NCBI GenBank assembly: GCA_019745975.1
Contig: JAIESQ010000059.1
Location: forward strand, 1-36,973
Direction of reading: 5' to 3'
DNA length: 36,973 nt
Source: Pirellulales bacterium
Lineage (GTDB): Bacteria; Planctomycetota; Planctomycetia; Pirellulales; JAEUIK01
Position 1 is the first letter of the stretch, and each line of letters starts with the position of its first letter. Position numbers and translations under genes: made by a program. Of this stretch, positions 8,939-17,744 are shown piece by piece. Below the pieces are notes generated by a model that was not told the DNA's origin, ran no database searches, and saw only the letters and a list, made by a program, of their open reading frames with translations.

Positions 8939-8967
8939 TTGAGGCCCGGGGCCTGAATCCTTATATT
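8939..8967 (+). promoter_or_regulatory. Sigma70-type promoter of sat
   Basis: TTGAGG at 8939-8944 and TATATT at 8962-8967 are 17 bases apart. Transcription would start near 8974, which leaves a leader of about 148 bases before the sat ATG and includes the hairpin at 9028-9046. Confidence 0.55.
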
Positions 8968-9027
8968 GGGCGGACCACAAACACGGAGGTTTTGCCCAGT
9001 CCGCGCAGCATGTCTCGCAGGCCTTGC

Positions 9028-9046
9028 CTCTCCCGCAACGGGAGAG
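9028..9046 (+). promoter_or_regulatory. Strong hairpin in the sat leader
   Basis: CTCTCCCG (9028-9035) and CGGGAGAG (9039-9046) pair perfectly over eight bases around a CAA loop. The helix lies inside the predicted leader, 60 bases before the ribosome-binding site. It is not followed by a run of T, so it is not a standard intrinsic terminator. I do not recognise a known riboswitch fold around it. Confidence 0.5.
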
Positions 9047-9121
9047 CTGAAACCCGTCCTGCTACCCGCCCCCAATTTTCCGCATCGCGCCGCGGTTGGC
9101 GCCCCGAAGGAGCCTCGTTCG

Positions 9122-10396
9122 ATGAGCGATCTCGTTGCCCCGCATGGTGGTTTGTCTGAGCCCCTGGAATTGACCGTGCCGGCCGCCGAGCGGGCCGCGC
9201 TGGAGGCCGAAGCCGCCAAGCTGCCGAAGGTACCGGTTTCCGACGCCGATCTGTCGACTGTTTACCGCTTCGGCGATGGTGCCCTCAGTCCGCTGACCGG
9301 CCCGATGGATCGCGCGACCTACGAGCGAGTGCTCGACCGCGGCTCAATTGAGCACAACGGCAAGAGCTACGCTTGGACGATTCCCCTGTCGCTCCCGGTC
9401 ACCAAGGAATTAGCGGCCAAGCTCAGCAAGGGGCAGAAGGTCGCCCTGACCAACTCGGCCGGCAAAGTCGTCGCCACGCTCGATGTGACCGACGTATTCG
9501 AGTGGGACAAGCCACGCTATTTGAAGAGCGTCTACGGCACCGAGCGCACCGATCATCCGGGCGCCGACATGGTGCTCAAGGGAGACGCCGACAAGACACA
9601 CCTCATCGGCGGAAAGATCCGCGCGCTGCCGCAGCCCAAGCACTCGAAGTTTGGCAAGTACGTGCTCACGCCGCGCGAAGTGCGCAAGCTGCTCAAGGAA
9701 AAAGGGTGGAACCGCGTCGTCGCCTTCCAAACGCGCAACCCGCTGCACCGCGCCCACGAGTACGCCTTGGTCTACGGCCTTGAAACGCTCTTGCGCCAAG
9801 GGCACAACGCCGGCGCTTGCTTGAACCCTCTGATCGGCGAGACCAAGGGGGACGACGTGCACGCCGACGTGCGAATGCACACCTACGAAGCCTTGATCGA
9901 CACCCGGGCGCTGGGCGATGGCGACAGCGATACGGCGCTCTGGAAACCGCGCGGCGAGTCGGTCCCCGATCGCGTGATTTTGTTGGGGCTCGACATCAAG
10001 ATGTTCTACGGTGGCCCGCAGGAAGCGGTGATGCACGCCATCTACCGGCAGAACTACGGCTTCACGGACATCGTGATCGGCCGCAAGCACGCCGACGCTC
10101 CGTACCACGACGGCACGCCGATCTGGGGTGACTTCGACGCCCAGGAGATCTTCAAGAAGCTCGGCGGTGACTTGCAGATCAAGCCGCTGTGCGTGGGCTT
10201 TGCCGCGTACTATGAGTCGGCCGGCCGCGTCGACTTGATGGAGAACCACGCCGGCGAGAAGCCGGTGTCGATCTCCGGCAAGGAGGTCCGCAAGACGTTG
10301 CTCGAAGGGGGCGAGGTCGATCCGCGGATCATGCGCCCCACGACGTCGCGCATCTTATCCGAAGCGATGAGCGGCAAGCTGGCCCCAGCGAGCTAA
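9122..10396 (+). CDS. sat: Sulfate adenylyltransferase (ATP sulfurylase)
   Basis: The enzyme activates sulfate with ATP to adenosine 5'-phosphosulfate and pyrophosphate, the first step of sulfate assimilation; the homo-oligomeric type needs no CysN partner. The protein is 424 residues. An N-terminal PUA-like domain contains [14 protein letters not shown] and ends near residue 190. The catalytic domain has [14 protein letters not shown], carrying both the QxRN and HxxH ATP-binding signatures, [12 protein letters not shown], and [20 protein letters not shown]. The usual GRDHAG loop is GRKHAD here, a substitution to check. The start at 9122 is fixed by AAGGAG at 9107-9112. The frame continues upstream to 8966 but without support. 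No APS kinase or reductase is adjacent. Confidence 0.95.
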
Positions 10397-10445: not shown

Positions 10446-12176
10446 CTATTTCTTCCCCTTGTGCTCGACTTTGGGCCAGTACTTCTTGAAGTCGAAGTCG
10501 ACACTATTGTCGTCGTCGTGACACTTGATGCACGTCTGCTCGACGGTGGCGCTGGTGAGCTTCAGCGCGGCCCGCAGCGCCTCGCGCTGCGCCGGATTGC
10601 GGTTGACTCCCGTCGCTTTCTCCGCCGCGACGTGTGCGGCGGCCGGCCCGTGGCAGTTCTCGCAGCCGTTGCCGACCAAGAGCGGCGTCGAATCGAGCCC
10701 GAGAAAGCCCGTCTCGTACGGGTAGTACTCCTGCGCGTTCCAGCCAGTCGCGTGGCAACTGACACACTCCGGATCGTACTGCCGCGGTGGATCGAGCTTG
10801 GTCAGCGTTTCGGTCGCGTGGGCGTGAGGCGTCTTGCTCCAAATGCCGTGCGCCGTGGGGTGACACTCCTGGCAACTCGCGGCGCCGGCAAATACGGCCA
10901 GCGGATCGCCCGGGTGCCCCGCGCGCGGATGCGGTGCGGGGCGCAGCTCAAGCCCGGCGAAGCTTTCGGCCTGAAGCTGACCTTGGTAGGCCACCATCAA
11001 CTGGTGCATTTCGGGCGTGTTGGGAAAGCGACTGTCGAGCGGCACGCGCTGGTAGCGCCAGCGGGGCTCGGCGTCGCCAAAAAAGCCCAGCGCCGCTACG
11101 TACATCCCCTTGTGGCCGACATCGACCAGCAGGGCTTTGGTTCCTTCGACTGGCGTGGTCTCGCGTGGCGGTTCGTCGACGCCGGTGGCCGTAACCACCA
11201 CATCGAAATCGGGAAAGCGCTTGGCCAGCTCGCGCGCCTCGTCAAGTGACGTGTGGGCCAAGAGCACGCGGATGTCCGCGGCTTTGGTCAGTTCGGGCAT
11301 AATTTCCGCAATTGCCTCGGCAGCTGGCTTGGTCGCGATTTCGGCGTTATTGGCCAGGCCGGCGCGCAACGAGTCGCCGAGCACGGCCGTGATGACGATT
11401 TTGTGACCGGCGGCTTCAACGACTCGCCAGCGCGGCGTAATAGCCGAGTCGAGCCCGAGCAAGCCGACATTGGCCGACACGAAGCGACTTGTGCCCGCGT
11501 CGTCGGCCAGGTTGGTTACCGCGCCCAATAGCTCATTGGTCGACAGCCGCAGATCGTCGGGACCGAAGCCAACTGCCGCATAGTTCATTGTGCGCAGCGC
11601 CTCGACCGTGATATTGAACTGAATGTTCGCCTGACGGCCGAAACGGCGCACCTGGTCTCCCACGTCGAGCGTCACCAACGGCCAACCCTGGCCGGCCAGT
11701 TGCTGGATCAGCGCGTGACGGCGACTGAGTCCGCCTTTTTGATTGTCGATGCCGGTGCAGCCGCACGGTTCGAGATAGCCGTGCTGTAAACCCGAAATCA
11801 ACAGCGCGAACTCGGGCTTGGGCCAGCCTGCGAAGATCGGGCCGTTGCGCTTGACCGGATCGATCTTGGGCTTTTCGGACTTCGCGTAGGCGTCGGCCGC
11901 GCCATCGACAGCATGATCGTCGGCATTGCTGCCGGCCGTTGCGCCGGCAGCAGCGGCGAGGGCCTCGGGCCTTCCGGCCGTGGCATCGGCCATGGGGAGG
12001 TTCGCATCCGCGACGGCAATGTCTCCAGCAGATTCCGTCGCATCGGAGCGCGCGGCTCCGGTGGCCGCGTTAGCGGACGTCGGCGGTGGCGACGTGGCGC
12101 TTGGCCCGCAACCGACGAACGTCGTAGCGACCAGCCAACATCCATAGCCGAGAGTACGGGGAAGGTTCAGCGTCAT
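10446..12176 (-). CDS. Lipoprotein with UshA-like phosphoesterase domain and four c-type haem sites
   Basis: A 576-residue exported protein. The ATG at 12176 is chosen because GAAAGG precedes it by eight bases and the next residues form a lipoprotein signal with lipobox Cys at position 23; a longer start at 12239 lacks these. After an alanine-rich linker, residues of about 120-400 resemble a calcineurin/5'-nucleotidase fold (LVTLDVGDQVRRF, VRVLLAHTSLDEA), but the usual metal ligands DxHG, GNHE and GHxH are not intact. It has an EPCGC motif at C138 and C140, as in proteins called UshA-like (seleno)protein. The C-terminus resembles cytochrome c554, with four CxxCH sites: CQECH (C435), CVSCH, CENCH and CIKCH. 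It likely carries electrons at the membrane surface. The DUF1573 gene is 87 bases upstream. Confidence 0.85.
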   Translation of the reverse strand: MTLNLPRTLGYGCWLVATTFVGCGPSATSPPPTSANAATGAARSDATESAGDIAVADANLPMADATAGRPEALAAAAGATAGSNADDHAVDGAADAYAKSEKPKIDPVKRNGPIFAGWPKPEFALLISGLQHGYLEPCGCTGIDNQKGGLSRRHALIQQLAGQGWPLVTLDVGDQVRRFGRQANIQFNITVEALRTMNYAAVGFGPDDLRLSTNELLGAVTNLADDAGTSRFVSANVGLLGLDSAITPRWRVVEAAGHKIVITAVLGDSLRAGLANNAEIATKPAAEAIAEIMPELTKAADIRVLLAHTSLDEARELAKRFPDFDVVVTATGVDEPPRETTPVEGTKALLVDVGHKGMYVAALGFFGDAEPRWRYQRVPLDSRFPNTPEMHQLMVAYQGQLQAESFAGLELRPAPHPRAGHPGDPLAVFAGAASCQECHPTAHGIWSKTPHAHATETLTKLDPPRQYDPECVSCHATGWNAQEYYPYETGFLGLDSTPLLVGNGCENCHGPAAAHVAAEKATGVNRNPAQREALRAALKLTSATVEQTCIKCHDDDNSVDFDFKKYWPKVEHKGKK

Positions 12177-12263
12177 CCGTCTTGCCTTTCTCAATCGTCC
12201 GTGACGAGAAGCTCGCCGCTTGCCGGTTCGGCTATCCAAACAATCGAACTGGCTGCGTCGCGA

Positions 12264-13457
12264 TCACCGCGCTTCGATGGCGAACTCGACGAGAATCCGC
12301 AGTTGCGGCGCGTCGGGATGCGTCGATCGCAGCATGATCTCGCCGTAGCCTCCATGCCCTGCCCCGAGTTTGCTCAGTGGTCGCGTGCCGGCGGGCACAT
12401 CGACCGTCAGCGGAATCTGTCGCACGCGGCCGCGGTCGTCCGCCGTGCCCAGGCTGGCCTGCAACTCCGGCGGATCGGTACGCTCAATATCGATTGTCGA
12501 CTCTTGGCGGTGCGGGCCTCGAATCAAGAGAGTCAGCCGCCGGCTCGTTCCGTCCTTTGCCGAGACCGCCCCTAAGCGCAACAGGCCGCGGCGTTCGTCC
12601 CAGCCTGGGCCAACCAGGCTGATATCGCTGTTAACCTGGCCGCCGATTGGTACTTGCACTTCGGGGTACGCGGCCAGGCCGGTCGCGAGCAGGATTCTCT
12701 GGTGAACGGCCCCAACGGGCAAGCCGGGTTTTATCGTAATCCGCACGAGCTGGCCCGAGCGCGGCGACAGCGATGCTAGCGAGGGCTCGGCCAGTTCCGC
12801 GGGGGTCAGCGGGCGCCAACTCACATCAAACGAACTAGCAGTTTGAGGCTGTTCGCAACGCCATTCGGTGAACACGAGTTGGTCGTACACGCCAGACACG
12901 ACGCGAATTTCATATTGGTTCGTTTCCGTGGCAATCTTCTCGAAATACAGCCCCTCGGGGCGGACGGCGATCGACTCCACGACGCGCCCCACGATCTCAA
13001 AACGCAACTCACTGTGCTGCGGGTCGTTCGTGAAGATCGTGGCGGTCTGGCGGAAGTCCGCCCGCAGGCTGTCGGCTTTCCATTCGAGGCGGACCTCGGT
13101 CGATTGCCCGGGCGCGAGCTCTGTTTTTTCGAGGCCACTCACCGTGCACTTACAGGTGGTGTCTCCTTTCGAGAGCTTGAGCACGCCTTGCCCTGAGTTG
13201 GTGACGCGGAACACATGGTTGCGCGACGTGCCCCGCTCCATCTGACCGAAATCAAAGCGTGTCGATTCGACCACGACTTGCGGTTGCGGGCCGCCGGCGG
13301 GAGCCAACTCGGGACGCCGCGGATCGGTGGCATCATCCACGGGCGCGGCCAGCGCCAAATCGTCGAGCGCCAGCCGGCGCAGATCGCGCCAGCTCGTGGC
13401 TACCCCCACCGCCACCCCGCACAGCGCGGCAAACAGAATCGCCAGTAACGTTCGCAT
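12264..13457 (-). CDS. DUF1573-domain exported protein
   Basis: A 397-residue protein with an N-terminal membrane or signal segment (LLAILFAALCGVAVGVATS) and an extracytoplasmic part of beta-sandwich domains. Residues of about 60-155 match DUF1573/HYDIN-like domains: RFDFGQMERGTSRNHVFRVT, then LKLSKGDTTCKCTVSGL with the conserved cysteine pair, LAPGQSTEVRLEW and ATIFTNDPQHSELRFEIVG. A second domain of the same kind probably covers residues 240-390. Function is unknown; these domains are common in Planctomycetota and Bacteroidota and probably bind protein. The gene has its own compact promoter (13464-13492) and no ribosome-binding site, so its message should be leaderless. The following gene encodes the multihaem lipoprotein. 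Confidence 0.88.
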   Translation of the reverse strand: MRTLLAILFAALCGVAVGVATSWRDLRRLALDDLALAAPVDDATDPRRPELAPAGGPQPQVVVESTRFDFGQMERGTSRNHVFRVTNSGQGVLKLSKGDTTCKCTVSGLEKTELAPGQSTEVRLEWKADSLRADFRQTATIFTNDPQHSELRFEIVGRVVESIAVRPEGLYFEKIATETNQYEIRVVSGVYDQLVFTEWRCEQPQTASSFDVSWRPLTPAELAEPSLASLSPRSGQLVRITIKPGLPVGAVHQRILLATGLAAYPEVQVPIGGQVNSDISLVGPGWDERRGLLRLGAVSAKDGTSRRLTLLIRGPHRQESTIDIERTDPPELQASLGTADDRGRVRQIPLTVDVPAGTRPLSKLGAGHGGYGEIMLRSTHPDAPQLRILVEFAIEAR

Positions 13458-13463
13458 GCTTCG

Positions 13464-13492
13464 AGTATCGAGCGGGCAGGTTGGTTGGTCAA
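13464..13492 (-). promoter_or_regulatory. Compact leaderless promoter of the DUF1573 gene
   Basis: On the minus strand, TTGACC reads from 13492 to 13487, a 17-base spacer follows, and GATACT reads from 13469 to 13464. Only six bases then separate the -10 from the ATG at 13457. The TGA inside the -35 (13491-13489) is the stop codon of the O-antigen-ligase gene. Confidence 0.6.
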
Positions 13493-15915
13493 TCGGCCGC
13501 CGATGGTAGCCGCCGAGCGGCCGAATCAGGTCGCTGTTCCGGTGCCGAGGTTGATGACGCTGTTGTCGCGGGCCCTAACCCGGCGGCGGTCAATTCGTCG
13601 CGCAGACTCGGGTGTAACCGCTGATCGGCATGCGGCGTCAGGCGGTCGAACTCCCACGCCGCGGCCGCGGCGCGTCGCGCCTCGTCGCTGCGCCCAGCCG
13701 CTTTGTAAGCCAGCGCCAGCACGGCGCGCTCGCGGGCATGATTCGGATACAGCTCGACGGCGCGGCGGCAAGCTTCGACCGCTCGAGCAAAGTGCTCAGG
13801 GCGGTTGGTGCGTGCGCCGATCTGCCGATACCACTGGCCGACACGAAGCCAGACTGCGCTTTGGTGAGGACGCAATTCGATGGCTTTGGCCTGTGCCGCT
13901 TCGAACAGGGCCAGCGACTCTGGACGCTGGTCGTGCAGCCAGCGCTCGAAATGCCATTGCGCAAGATCGAGTTGCGGTTGCGCGGCGTAAGGATCGCTGG
14001 CGGCGGCGGCTTCGAGTCGCCGCTCGGCCTCGACGCCGGTCGACGCGCGCGCTGCGCTCGATTGGATCATGCTCAGCACCACGGGTTGATAACCGGTCCA
14101 ATAGCAGCCCACAGCACTCCCCAGCGCGGCGATCCCGATGACCGAGAGCGCGGCTCGCCCCAGTGAGAACTGCGCCGCGTTAGCGGCGGCGGACTGTTCA
14201 GGTGCGTGCTCGGGCGCGACGTTGAGCGCCAAAGCTATCAGCAGCCACAAACTGCCGGCAACAGCGGGAAAGGCAATTCCGCCGGCGGCCAACAAGTTGA
14301 ATGCCAACGCTAAGGCGGCGGCAGCCAGGATCGACGTCGGTAGGCGACCCCGTTCTACCCAGGGCCAGAGCAGCCATACGACCACGGCGCCGACCGCTGC
14401 AAAGCCCATGGTGGTCGACAGGCTCGGCGCAATGTCGATCAGTCCGCCGGTTAAACGTGGTCCTAACCAGGCCAGGACGAGTCCTGCTGCTGCGCCGATC
14501 AGAATCGACCTTTGCCCTGTCGTGACTTGCAGCAACGCAGTTTCAAAACCCTGTCTGGGCACCACTGCTGGCTTGCTCAACAGTGCAAGGTTCGACACCG
14601 CGCTGCTAGACGAGCTAGCGGTGGCGCACGAAGTCGGCTCCATGCTGGTTTCGAAACCGATGCTAGTTCGACGAAAACACAACCAGGTCGCGCCGACGAG
14701 CACGACGATTAGCGCCAGCGCCCCCGGCAAGCCGGCCGTGGCCGCCACTTCCAGAATCAGATTGTGCGGATCGTTGATTTCTTCGCTGGCGGTTGGCAGC
14801 TTGAAGCGTGTGTAGTGATCGCCGAAATTGCCAGGGCCGCAGCCGAGCCAGGGATGCTCGCGAACCATCTGAATCGTCGCCTGCCAGTATTGCCAGCGAA
14901 AGCCGAGCGACTTGGGCGCTTCGCTGAGCACTTCACGATCGAGCCCCCCGACCAGCACGCCGACCGCGACCATGAGCGCAATCGCGGCCGAGATCGTGGC
15001 AGCAATCGCGGCCGCGCGCTTCGGGTTAATCGTGCCGCGGCGTGCCAGGGCCACGAGCACGAGCCCGCCTCCTACGACGACTCCCGCCATTGCCGAGCGA
15101 CTCTTGGTGAGGACGAGCGCAAAGCCGCCGACCAGCGCGATCGCGGCGGCGCCTGCGAGCACTCGGACTAGTATCGTGGCATTCCCACGATAAAACTCGC
15201 GCCAACTCAGCCAACCGATGGCCGGCGCCACCAGCAGCCACGGCACGAGCCAGCCCGCCAGCGAGTTGGCCAAGGCAAATGTTCCAGGCGGCTCGGTGCT
15301 GAACAGCCGCTGCTCGAAAAGTTCGCGCTCGGTCGATCCAGGCGGAAAATCCAATCCCTCGGCGGCCAAAGCCGCATCGGGGTCATCCAGATACATCGCG
15401 CGATCGGCTGGCAGGCTGACAAAATACTGGTACAGCGCATAGCCGCTGATGCCAACTGCGATCGCCAGCATCACCGCGACGACGGTACGGGCCTCGCGAT
15501 CATCGGCCACCAGTTGGCGCCACAACCAAAACGCGGCGCCGACCGCCAGCCAGCTCCACAACATGTTGATCGCGGGGCGGGAAGCGTCGACCACCGCCGC
15601 GTGTCCCGCGGCGATGACCGACCAGGCCACGAGGAGCAGCATGCCCGCGTCGATCCAGCCGGTGCGTACGAATACCTGGCGATCGTGCCAGGCAGCAGTC
15701 GCCCAACCCAATAGCGTCAAGAGCCAGAACAAATCCAAGGGGAGCCCGTCGCCGCGCCAAGCGACTGATTCGCTGGGGGACAGCAGCCGGGCAATCGACA
15801 GCGCGGTACACACCCCAAGCAGCCAGGGTCGGCTCGCCGTCAGCCACGGCCTGCGCTGGGCGACGGCGGCACTTCGCGCTGTTGTCCGCCGCCGTTCGGT
15901 CGCCGCGCGCGCCAT
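13489..15915 (-). CDS. O-antigen-ligase-family membrane protein with C-terminal TPR domain
   Basis: An 808-residue polytopic membrane protein of the WaaL/Wzy_C superfamily, which joins or polymerises glycans from lipid-linked precursors at the outer face of the inner membrane. Many hydrophobic helices fill residues of about 25-440 and 500-610. The signature region is GCGPGNFGDHYTRF followed by NDPHNLILEVAATAGLPG, in the large periplasmic loop. After the last helices, residues of about 640-790 form TPR-like repeats (DPYAAQPQLDLAQWHFERWL, AIELRPHQSAVWLRVGQWYR, AVELYPNHARERAVLALAYK). The ATG at 15915 is chosen because it lies five bases after the stop of the preceding gene; the frame extends upstream to 16212 but would overlap that gene. 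It belongs to an operon with the sugar-phosphate transferase, so a role in surface polysaccharide assembly is likely. Confidence 0.87.
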   Translation of the reverse strand: MARAATERRRTTARSAAVAQRRPWLTASRPWLLGVCTALSIARLLSPSESVAWRGDGLPLDLFWLLTLLGWATAAWHDRQVFVRTGWIDAGMLLLVAWSVIAAGHAAVVDASRPAINMLWSWLAVGAAFWLWRQLVADDREARTVVAVMLAIAVGISGYALYQYFVSLPADRAMYLDDPDAALAAEGLDFPPGSTERELFEQRLFSTEPPGTFALANSLAGWLVPWLLVAPAIGWLSWREFYRGNATILVRVLAGAAAIALVGGFALVLTKSRSAMAGVVVGGGLVLVALARRGTINPKRAAAIAATISAAIALMVAVGVLVGGLDREVLSEAPKSLGFRWQYWQATIQMVREHPWLGCGPGNFGDHYTRFKLPTASEEINDPHNLILEVAATAGLPGALALIVVLVGATWLCFRRTSIGFETSMEPTSCATASSSSSAVSNLALLSKPAVVPRQGFETALLQVTTGQRSILIGAAAGLVLAWLGPRLTGGLIDIAPSLSTTMGFAAVGAVVVWLLWPWVERGRLPTSILAAAALALAFNLLAAGGIAFPAVAGSLWLLIALALNVAPEHAPEQSAAANAAQFSLGRAALSVIGIAALGSAVGCYWTGYQPVVLSMIQSSAARASTGVEAERRLEAAAASDPYAAQPQLDLAQWHFERWLHDQRPESLALFEAAQAKAIELRPHQSAVWLRVGQWYRQIGARTNRPEHFARAVEACRRAVELYPNHARERAVLALAYKAAGRSDEARRAAAAAWEFDRLTPHADQRLHPSLRDELTAAGLGPATTASSTSAPEQRPDSAARRLPSAAD

Positions 15916-15920
15916 GGAGA

Positions 15921-17045
15921 TCACCGTCGCCGCGCCGCGGTTTCGAGGATCGTCACCAGCAGGAGCACGCAGGCCACTAATAGCAGAATCACCGCGGCGC
16001 CGGCCAGATCGACCTGATACAACAACAGTGCGCCCAGGCCAGTCGTCGCGGTCGCCAGGTAGATCGTCAGCACCGCCTGACTCTTCGTCATCCCCAACTG
16101 CGCCAATCGGTGCGAAAAGTGGTTCTTGTCGGCCGCGAAGGGGCTTCGTCCTTCGCGCAGGCGAATGATCACCACGGTCAGCGTGTCGTAGAGCGGTATC
16201 GCCAGCACGCAAAGCGGCGCCAGGATCGCATGCCTGGGAACGTCACCACCGGCAAACGTGGCCGCCATGGTCGCCACGGCCAGCATGAAGCCGATGAAGT
16301 AACTGCCCGCGTCCCCCATGAACAGGCGCGCCGGCGGTCGGTTGTGCCACAAGAAACCCAACAACGAGCCGACCAGCACCAGCAGAAATCCGGCAACGAA
16401 CAATTGTGGCTGGTGCGTGAATGGATCGGGCGCTAAGAGCATCACCGTGGCCAACATCGCGGCCGCGATGGCGGCCACTCCCCCGGACAGTCCATCCATA
16501 TTGTCGAGAAAGTTGAACGAGTTCACCAGGCCGACGATCCACAGCACCGACAGCAAGTCAGTGAGCCACGGAATACTCAAGAAAATCGTCAACCGCCAGC
16601 CTTGCCAGACAATCAATCCCGCGACGAGAAACTCAATCGCCAGCCGAGGTCGCCAATCGAGGCCGCGCAAATCATCGGTGAGCCCCAACAGCATCAACAG
16701 CGTTCCGGCCGCCAGCAGCAGCCAAAGCTGGGGCGCTTGCTCCAAAAAACCGGTTACGTGCGGCGCGACAAAAGCCGGCAGCGGAATCGCCAGTCGCGCG
16801 GGATCGGTTGACGACGGTCGACCAAACCAAGCTGCGGCTGCCACCGCATGGGCCCCTGCGAGCGGCAGCACCACACCGAGCCAAATGGCGATGCCTCCCC
16901 CTAAGGGCGTCACGCGGGTGTGCACCTTGCGCGCGGCCGGATGATCGACCAGCCCGATGCGCGGCGCCGCGCGGCGGATGACAAATCCGGCCGACCAGCT
17001 CACCAGCAGGCTCGCGGCCACGGTGCCGACGACCACCCAGATCAA
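15921..17045 (-). CDS. WecA/MraY-family undecaprenyl-phosphate sugar-1-phosphate transferase
   Basis: A 374-residue integral membrane enzyme that starts lipid-linked glycan synthesis by moving a sugar 1-phosphate from a UDP-sugar to undecaprenyl phosphate. About ten membrane segments are visible. Family motifs are HPAARKVHTRVTPLGGG near the N-terminus, LGLTDDLRGLDWRPR with the paired aspartates, NSFNFLDNMDGLSGG, FMGDAGSYFIGF and the cytoplasmic DKNHFSHRLAQLGMTKSQAV histidine loop. The set points to WecA/TagO-like enzymes rather than true MraY. It starts with TTG at 17045, in a TTGA overlap with the stop of the DUF4416 gene, and GAGGAG lies eight bases ahead, so coupling is likely. The sugar cannot be named. 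Confidence 0.9.
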   Translation of the reverse strand: MIWVVVGTVAASLLVSWSAGFVIRRAAPRIGLVDHPAARKVHTRVTPLGGGIAIWLGVVLPLAGAHAVAAAAWFGRPSSTDPARLAIPLPAFVAPHVTGFLEQAPQLWLLLAAGTLLMLLGLTDDLRGLDWRPRLAIEFLVAGLIVWQGWRLTIFLSIPWLTDLLSVLWIVGLVNSFNFLDNMDGLSGGVAAIAAAMLATVMLLAPDPFTHQPQLFVAGFLLVLVGSLLGFLWHNRPPARLFMGDAGSYFIGFMLAVATMAATFAGGDVPRHAILAPLCVLAIPLYDTLTVVIIRLREGRSPFAADKNHFSHRLAQLGMTKSQAVLTIYLATATTGLGALLLYQVDLAGAAVILLLVACVLLLVTILETAARRR

Positions 17046-17590
17046 GCGTGTCGCTCCTCGCGCCCGAGGCGCAACCGCGCGCGGCAGGCGGAAAAGAATT
17101 CGTGGTAATCGCCGCGGCGATAGTCAGGAAACGTCCACTCCCAGGGCTGCCAGCGGCCGTGTTTCCAGGAGAGTGTCACTTCAGCGTAGATGCCGTCGGC
17201 CAAGTAGATGCGATGGGCATGGTCCTTAGTCGAGGCCAGCACCAGTTTGGCGAGCGTGAGATAGCCTGGATCGAGGTTCAATGGCCGCTGCTCCGGATGC
17301 TTTCCCAGGTTAGCATACGCTAGCTCCCAACTGTTGGTTTGCCGTTTGACAGCGGATAGCTGCTGCGGCCAGTTGGTCGACGGCGCGAACACGAGAAACT
17401 GCTTCCGCAATCCAGGGCCCATTTCGCCGGTGTAATAGTCGGTTTCCCAGAAGTCGAACCTGGGGCTGGCTGCCACGATCGGGCCCCAAGCCGCTTCAGC
17501 CTGGCTGCAGGCCCAATCGAGGGCTTCGCCATAGCGACTGAACGCGGCCAAGAGCGGGAGCACGGGAAGCGCAGGGTAAGGTTGGCCCAT
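17042..17590 (-). CDS. DUF4416-family protein
   Basis: A 182-residue soluble protein from the ATG at 17590; an in-frame ATG at 17623 would add eleven residues, but the family usually begins close to LLAAFSRYGEALDWA. The C-terminal half contains the characteristic NLDPGYLTLAKLVLASTKDH, then HRIYLADGIYAEVTL and PWEWTFPDYRRGDYHEFF. The biochemical function of DUF4416 is unknown. It is the first gene of the surface-polysaccharide operon, its stop overlapping the next start in TTGA, and it is divergent from the bestrophin gene. No strong promoter is visible in the 154-base divergent spacer for this direction. Confidence 0.85.
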   Translation of the reverse strand: MGQPYPALPVLPLLAAFSRYGEALDWACSQAEAAWGPIVAASPRFDFWETDYYTGEMGPGLRKQFLVFAPSTNWPQQLSAVKRQTNSWELAYANLGKHPEQRPLNLDPGYLTLAKLVLASTKDHAHRIYLADGIYAEVTLSWKHGRWQPWEWTFPDYRRGDYHEFFSACRARLRLGREERHA

Positions 17591-17744
17591 CGATCGAGTC
17601 GCCCGCCAGAGTCGAGGTGCCATCGAAGTTCCGTCGCCGTCGCCAAGTTCGCCGCTACAATCCTAGACCATTGCCCCCTCGCGCGTCAGGCCGCGGCAGA
17701 CCGGGCGCACGGCTTCGGTCCATTTCAGTTTGGCTGGCAATCGC

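What the first reader, a model, noticed from the sequence alone, without database searches (positions are those of the whole stretch)
10446..12176. Lipoprotein joining a degenerate UshA-like phosphoesterase domain to a tetrahaem module
The phosphoesterase-like part has lost the usual metal-ligand motifs but carries a C-G-C motif at residues 138-140, and it is fused to four CxxCH sites. This suggests a redox protein that reused the nucleotidase fold, perhaps a thiol-redox or electron-transfer unit at the cell surface.
Basis: partly seen in the sequence, partly recalled or inferred. Interest (0 to 1): 0.5.

Follow-up and report, generated by a model that had tools for sequence, protein, structure and literature searches.

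The report
Haem-linked thiol/selenol protein, ex-nucleotidase fold
A planctomycete lipoprotein joins a nucleotidase-like domain whose metal site has decayed to a four-haem electron carrier; a cysteine pair (selenocysteine in many relatives) has become its most conserved feature, which points to a widespread but uncharacterised thiol-redox enzyme.

Summary
ORF 10446-12176 (-) encodes a 576-residue probable lipoprotein: a 5'-nucleotidase/UshA-fold domain without a conserved two-metal site, C138-G-C140, and a cytochrome c554-type module with four CxxCH. It is not a new family. NCBIfam already has NF041198, "UshA-like (seleno)protein", tabulated in the literature as a CxU selenoprotein. The window protein is a Cys relative below that model's cut-off (198.7 against 275 bits).

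New here: C138, G139 and C140 are invariant in 79 aligned relatives, like the haem cysteines. In 18 of 80 loci found by a haem-motif scan an in-frame TGA replaces Cys140. A SECIS-like hairpin follows 30 of 35 such TGAs, against 2 of 131 Cys copies. In the window's order a DUF1573 gene (a family with Sec members at its CxC) lies directly upstream in 34 of 40 loci; elsewhere thioredoxin-like genes are neighbours. Removing the phosphoesterase domain degrades the model only around haem 2.

Best reading: a haem-wired periplasmic dithiol/selenothiol oxidoreductase. Substrate, electron direction and Cys-haem distance are not shown.

The parts
10446..12176 (-). CDS of the UshA-like/tetrahaem lipoprotein (576 aa, ATG start; a TTG start at 12239 would add 21 aa)
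   Evidence: match to NF041198, 198.7 bits
12108..12176 (-). Signal peptide with lipobox-like F-V-G-C23 (residues 1-23)
   Evidence: read from sequence; comparable sites in many but not all homologues
11841..12107 (-). Ala/Thr/Ser/Pro-rich linker, residues 24-112, low complexity
   Evidence: read from sequence
10977..11825 (-). Degenerate 5'-nucleotidase/UshA-fold domain, about residues 118-400
   Evidence: AF2 model; Z 28.6 to CD73; hmmsearch of A2 against PDB chains, 5'-nucleotidases E about 1e-26 to 1e-17
11757..11765 (-). C138-G139-C140; second position is Sec (in-frame TGA) in many relatives
   Evidence: 79/79 invariant in A2, U counted as C; TGA in 18/80 loci
10449..10898 (-). Cytochrome c554-type tetrahaem module, residues 427-576
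   Evidence: PF13435 E 2.5e-13; 1bvb cytochrome c554 E 1.6e-9; VIA-align Z 6.2 to 1ft6
10860..10874 (-). Haem site 1 CQECH (435-439)
   Evidence: invariant
10752..10766 (-). Haem site 2 CVSCH (471-475), inside the segment that needs the phosphoesterase domain to be modelled well
   Evidence: searches compared
10650..10664 (-). Haem site 3 CENCH (505-509)
   Evidence: invariant
10518..10532 (-). Haem site 4 CIKCH (549-553)
   Evidence: invariant
12264..13457 (-). Upstream DUF1573 protein, 87 bp before the ATG; probable partner
   Evidence: PF07610 E 2.2e-17; NF041425 OS_HP2 54.6 bits, cut-off 100; same order and strand in 34 of 40 loci of the window's order
13146..13154 (-). CxC (C-K-C, residues 102-104) of the DUF1573 protein
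   Evidence: both Cys columns 46 of 47 in the aligned neighbours

Best explanation
A membrane-anchored periplasmic oxidoreductase. The 5'-nucleotidase fold is kept as a scaffold, its two-metal site has decayed, and a C-x-C (in relatives C-x-Sec) pair in the loop that follows the old DxH metal motif is the new reactive site. This pair exchanges two electrons with a dithiol or another oxidised sulfur or peroxide substrate, and the fused tetrahaem module passes those electrons one at a time to or from the periplasmic cytochrome pool. In the window's order the upstream DUF1573 protein, with its own CxC, is the likeliest protein partner. Shown: architecture, motif conservation, Sec/Cys exchange, decay of metal-ligand columns, gene pairing. 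Inferred: that the pair is the redox site, that it lies near haem 2, and that the partner is DUF1573. Not decided: direction of flow and final substrate.
For: C138/G139/C140 invariant in 79/79 aligned relatives while all six former metal-ligand columns vary. The 80 loci were seeded on a haem motif only, and all 80 carry C-G-[C/U] (L224 read). Sec replaces Cys140 in 18/80, and a SECIS-like apical hairpin follows 30/35 TGAs against 2/131 Cys copies. Sec/Cys switches at least 6 (well supported) to 9 times on a 134-row tree. Two intact planctomycete nucleotidases met by chance, L136 and L142, keep the metal motifs and have neither CxC nor haem sites. Thiol-redox neighbours: DUF1573 with CxC in 34/40, 4/4 and 9/9 planctomycete loci; a DsbA-like CGHC gene in 4/4 Nitrospinota-type loci; a cluster with a thioredoxin-domain member downstream in 8 planctomycete/verrucomicrobial loci, CxxC seen in 6 of 8. 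Haem-2 segment (residues about 464-503) has pLDDT 96-97 with the phosphoesterase domain and 59-72 without it.
Against: No activity, haem content or Cys-haem distance was measured. DsbA itself is rare in the window's order (9 of 57 genomes, none in the own genome), so a plain Dsb-type role has no obvious client there. DUF1573 pairing is confined to some planctomycetes: 0 of 18 Sec-type loci and 0 of 7 others. The two models differ in alignment depth (79 against 49 rows), so the pLDDT drop is indirect. A CxC pair can also bind Cu(I) or another soft metal.
Confidence: 0.62

Rival explanations
1. The CxC/CxSec pair holds Cu(I) (or another soft metal) next to an open haem, giving a haem-metal site for sulfite or another sulfur oxyanion, as recalled for the octahaem sulfite reductase MccA.
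For: The c554 part matches MccA (E 2.9e-5) and a solved multihaem selenoprotein named MccSep (E 4e-4). Only two non-CxxCH histidines are invariant and a third is 71/79, so one of four haems lacks a conserved sixth ligand. SoxB shares the fold (Z 27.7).
Against: The matches cover only generic multihaem stretches. No further metal ligand is invariant around the pair. Thiol-redox neighbours fit a dithiol better.
Confidence: 0.15
2. Still a hydrolase: a phosphoesterase or thiosulfohydrolase like SoxB, with the haems only as a redox sensor or docking unit.
For: Clear 5'-nucleotidase/SoxB fold; the window itself keeps H132, D174 and H308.
Against: The six ligand columns vary freely, e.g. position 174 is G in 43, D in 14 and N in 14 of 79. 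No 5'-nucleotidase C-terminal domain found. SoxB model score 21.1 against cut-off 550.
Confidence: 0.06
3. Plain electron carrier: the phosphoesterase fold is a structural cap, and the CxC is a structural disulfide or a haem ligand.
For: Tetrahaem module with three likely distal His; invariant cysteines can be structural.
Against: Repeated exchange of exactly the second Cys for Sec, with SECIS-like hairpins, is unusual for a purely structural cysteine.
Confidence: 0.12

Closest known systems
NCBIfam NF041198, UshA-like (seleno)protein (PCGU)
   Same: Same two-part architecture along the 519-position model; P-C-G-[C/U] motif; c554 C-terminus.
   Different: Window protein scores 198.7 against a cut-off of 275 and has Cys, not Sec; 0 of 57 relatives reach the cut-off. 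It is paired with DUF1573.
5'-nucleotidase/UshA (CD73, E. coli UshA)
   Same: Fold of the metallophosphatase domain, Z 27-28.6; GGxxRR motif shared.
   Different: No conserved metal pair, no C-terminal substrate domain, haem module instead.
Thiosulfohydrolase SoxB
   Same: Same fold, Z 27.7; weak model match.
   Different: Far below the SoxB cut-off; no conserved metal site.
Cytochrome c554 (Nitrosomonas CycA)
   Same: Four CxxCH, PF13435, E 1.6e-9 to 1bvb.
   Different: Here a C-terminal module of a larger protein; CycA model 40.1 against cut-off 400; structural Z only 6.2.
DUF1573 / OS_HP2 (seleno)protein NF041425
   Same: The upstream neighbour belongs to PF07610; literature tables list Sec members with UGC.
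   Different: Window neighbour has C-K-C and scores 54.6 against cut-off 100 of NF041425.

Membership tests
NCBIfam NF041198 UshA-like (seleno)protein | Whole-protein score at or above the curated cut-off (275 bits) | tested here: not met
   198.7 bits, two stretches
NCBIfam NF041198 UshA-like (seleno)protein | C-x-[C/U] motif in the first loop, fused c554 module | tested here: met
NCBIfam NF041198 UshA-like (seleno)protein | Selenocysteine at the second motif position | tested here: not met
   TGC in the window; the '(seleno)' name allows Cys
5'-nucleotidase / UshA | Two-metal ligand set (DxH, GD, GNHEFD, H, GHSH; recalled) | tested here: not met
   three of six places filled in the window, none conserved in 79 relatives; intact in L136 and L142
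5'-nucleotidase / UshA | Metallophosphatase fold | tested here: met
   Z 28.6, rmsd 2.5 over 278 residues
5'-nucleotidase / UshA | C-terminal substrate-binding domain | tested here: not met
   no Pfam match, c554 module instead
Thiosulfohydrolase SoxB | TIGR04486 cut-off 550 | tested here: not met
   21.1 bits
Cytochrome c554 family (PF13435) | Pfam gathering score and four CxxCH | tested here: met
   51.2 against 20.8 bits; sites at 435, 471, 505, 549
Cytochrome c554 family (PF13435) | Covalent haem in the protein | not testable with these tools
   needs haem staining or spectra
Haem-copper sulfite reductase MccA type | Cu(I) bound by two Cys beside the catalytic haem (recalled) | not testable with these tools
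   no coordinates or metal data
DUF1573 / OS_HP2 NF041425 (neighbour) | PF07610 gathering score | tested here: met
   63.3 against 26.1 bits
DUF1573 / OS_HP2 NF041425 (neighbour) | NF041425 cut-off 100 | tested here: not met
   54.6 bits

The most novel reading that the evidence does not exclude
The CxC/CxSec loop and the open haem 2 form one joint active site: a class of haem-wired thiol/selenol enzymes, found in many phyla, that links periplasmic protein dithiols (DUF1573 in planctomycetes, DsbA- or thioredoxin-like proteins elsewhere) directly to the cytochrome pool. It would do the work of DsbB/VKOR in genomes that lack both, as do 36 of 57 relatives here, including the window's own genome.
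Probability: 0.22. Interest if true: 0.82.

Novelty: new variant of a known kind. Interest (0 to 1): 0.55.

Why it matters
A protein family present in many bacterial phyla and tabulated for years as an unexplained CxU selenoprotein gets a concrete, testable role. Its probable active site can be named (C138/C140), its electron path (the fused tetrahaem module), a candidate partner in planctomycetes (DUF1573), and a natural Sec/Cys comparison, including genomes with tandem CxU and CxC copies. If right, a two-metal hydrolase fold has been turned into a selenol/thiol oxidoreductase wired to haems, and a periplasmic thiol-electron route exists in bacteria without DsbB or VKOR.

Tried and rejected
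A link to the neighbouring ATP sulfurylase (8966-10396, +) was considered and dropped: it is convergent, and the window genes that recur on the same strand in other loci are the Wzy_C ligase, a WecA/MraY-like gene (so named by eye), DUF4416 and DUF1573. A classical DsbB-like role for DsbA was weakened: DsbA is in 9 of 57 relatives and in 0 of 7 genomes of the own family. The ECF sigma/anti-sigma pair upstream of Sec-type tandem copies and the Gammaproteobacterial neighbours (MiaB-like, PhoH, YbeY, coproporphyrinogen oxidase) gave no functional lead. A scan of viral contigs found nothing. Minimum-free-energy z-scores separate Sec from Cys copies only weakly (means -0.57 and -0.09, p 0.013); the loop-motif test is the clear one, but its loop pattern was chosen after seeing the Sec sequences. 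Foldseek alone found no significant match for the isolated haem module (0 with E <= 0.001); VIA-align listed only cytochrome c554, Z 6.2. Distances between C138/C140 and the haems could not be measured because no coordinates are released. Paper searches: 'UshA' + 'multiheme cytochrome' + 'selenocysteine' (0 papers), 'cytochrome c554' + 'nucleotidase' (0), 'multiheme' + 'metallophosphoesterase' (0), 'MccSep' (one unrelated paper), 'multiheme cytochrome' + 'selenoprotein' since 2015 (one paper, not opened), 'DUF1573' + 'cytochrome' (3; one of them, PMC10434189, not opened); the broad searches gave listings from which nothing new was opened. NF041198 hits alone are not specific: 9 of 14 control genomes ring below the cut-off, and the 57/57 tally there includes cytochrome-only matches (e.g. 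G001).

Full report
What is there. The frame 10446-12176 (-) encodes 576 residues: a lipoprotein-like start (C23), a low-complexity linker, a phosphoesterase-fold domain (about 118-400) and a c554-type module with CxxCH at 435, 471, 505 and 549. Pfam sees only the haem part (PF13435, E 2.5e-13). The whole is recognised by NCBIfam NF041198, "UshA-like (seleno)protein", whose 519 positions also include the c554 end; the score is 198.7 against a cut-off of 275. An AlphaFold2 model of residues 105-576 built on 79 relatives has mean pLDDT 95.1 and pTM 0.93. Its first domain matches 5'-nucleotidases at Z up to 28.6, rmsd 2.5 over 278 residues, and SoxB at Z 27.7.

The metal site is gone and CxC stands beside it. 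Against solved 5'-nucleotidases and two intact planctomycete enzymes (L136, L142), the six ligand places (identities recalled, placed by eye) read L130, H132, D174, P206, H308 and no GHSH in the window. In 79 relatives the columns vary: 130 E/D/R/N and others; 132 D/H/L/N and others; 174 G 43, D 14, N 14; 206 P 26, A 13, E 9; 308 H 33, Y 15. C138, G139 and C140 are 79/79, like the haem cysteines. R152/R153 (74 and 70 of 79) belong to a GGxxRR motif also seen in the aligned snake venom enzyme, so they are probably inherited. A few planctomycete members have another middle residue (PCAC in L124, PCDC in L125), so the constant is C-x-C/U.

Spread and selenocysteine. By record title they come from Desulfobulbaceae and other Deltaproteobacteria, Myxococcales/Myxococcota, Planctomycetes, Verrucomicrobia, Acidobacteria, Nitrospinota, Gemmatimonadota, Latescibacterota, Gammaproteobacteria and others. 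All 80 carry C-G-[C/U] (L224), and 18 of 80 have an in-frame TGA at the Cys140 codon. In the phylum scan (261 of 392 genomes with a match, 29 over the cut-off) I fetched 18 loci because one TGA inside the match was reported; all 18 have it at the same codon, and at least 11 carry tandem copies, one C-G-Sec and one C-G-C. A hairpin with an apical [AG]GTYT loop follows 30 of 35 TGAs and 2 of 131 Cys codons. The loop pattern was chosen after seeing the Sec sequences. On a 134-row tree the label changes at least 6 times on well-supported branches, 9 in all. SelB is over its cut-off in 17 of 25 genomes searched; four Sec-type genomes are not over it (G401, G333, G366, G390; 55-90% complete). The window's own genome has SelB and tRNA-Sec, yet codes Cys here.

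Window's order. 47 full-length copies from 46 genomes were read; with the window, 48 of 48 keep C-G-C, four CxxCH and H451, H515 and H572. Across phyla H451 and H515 are 79/79 and H572 is 71/79. With three candidate distal His for four haems, one haem probably lacks a protein sixth ligand, as recalled for cytochrome c554.

Partner gene. A DUF1573 gene lies on the same strand directly upstream (87 bp in the window). It is found in 34 of 40 loci of the window's order, 4 of 4 loci from elsewhere in the class, and 9 of 9 loci of one other-class group (one of these has it downstream), but in 0 of 18 Sec-type loci and 0 of 7 others. In the named set it is in 8 of 80, all titled as planctomycetes, one of them Scalindua. 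DUF1573 copies are few per genome (1 to 6 in 53 of 57 relatives, 8 to 15 in the other four), so the pairing is not chance. Its CxC columns are 46 of 47, and literature tables list Sec members of DUF1573 with UGC (PMC9312934, PMC13188914; passages only). In Nitrospinota-type loci a DsbA-like CGHC gene follows in 4 of 4 (one member scanned with Pfam). In a second planctomycete/verrucomicrobial operon a cluster whose scanned member has a thioredoxin domain follows in 8 loci, with CxxC seen in 6 of 8.

Domain contact. Modelled alone, the haem module drops to pLDDT 82.3, and residues about 464-503 (haem 2 and what follows it) fall to 59-72. The same residues are at 96-97 in the two-domain model. 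This is indirect evidence that the phosphoesterase domain packs on the haem-2 segment; alignment depth also differs (49 against 79 rows). No coordinates were available.

Mechanism. I read this as a haem-wired dithiol/selenothiol oxidoreductase. Thiol partners among the neighbours and the lack of DsbB (8 of 57) and VKOR (14 of 57; union 21 of 57, none in the own family's 7 genomes) lean slightly towards oxidation of protein thiols with the haems as electron acceptor. But DsbA is also rare (9 of 57), so reduction of a sulfur or peroxide substrate is nearly as likely.

Known or new. The family is named (NF041198) and was tabulated as COG0737 UshA-like, CxU, with 76 sequences in ocean data in 2008 (PMC2398784, passages) and in reviews (PMC9312934, PMC13188914, passages). 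The passages I read give no function and do not mention the haem fusion or the DUF1573 pairing. My searches found no paper that does, in an open-licence library only.

Noticed in passing
G000:C111:21846-25419 (own genome, outside the window): tRNA-Sec (66.5 bits) and SelB (349 bits) lie together, so the window's organism probably decodes selenocysteine although its UshA-like protein has Cys.
   Followed up: partly
L105-L117: In several planctomycete families tandem UshA-like genes occur, one with in-frame TGA (C-G-Sec) and one with C-G-C; in L105 an ECF sigma factor and a zf-HC2 anti-sigma gene lie just upstream.
   Followed up: partly
L162, L172, L182, L184, L188, L190, L196, L200, L213, L215, L217: A second operon type in Verrucomicrobia and planctomycetes: long genes without Pfam match (tested in L217), a DUF4159 gene with a C-C-C-C run near its end, the UshA-like gene, then in several of these loci a thioredoxin-like gene.
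   Followed up: partly
window 13489-17623 (-): Wzy_C ligase with TPR, a WecA/MraY-like transferase (named by eye) and DUF4416 genes recur upstream of the DUF1573 gene in about a third to half of the loci of the order.
   Followed up: no
PDB 9wt8/9wt9 (seen only as molecule names): A solved multihaem cytochrome selenoprotein, MccSep, with a U325A mutant, matches the c554 part weakly; a possible precedent for Sec near haem.
   Followed up: partly
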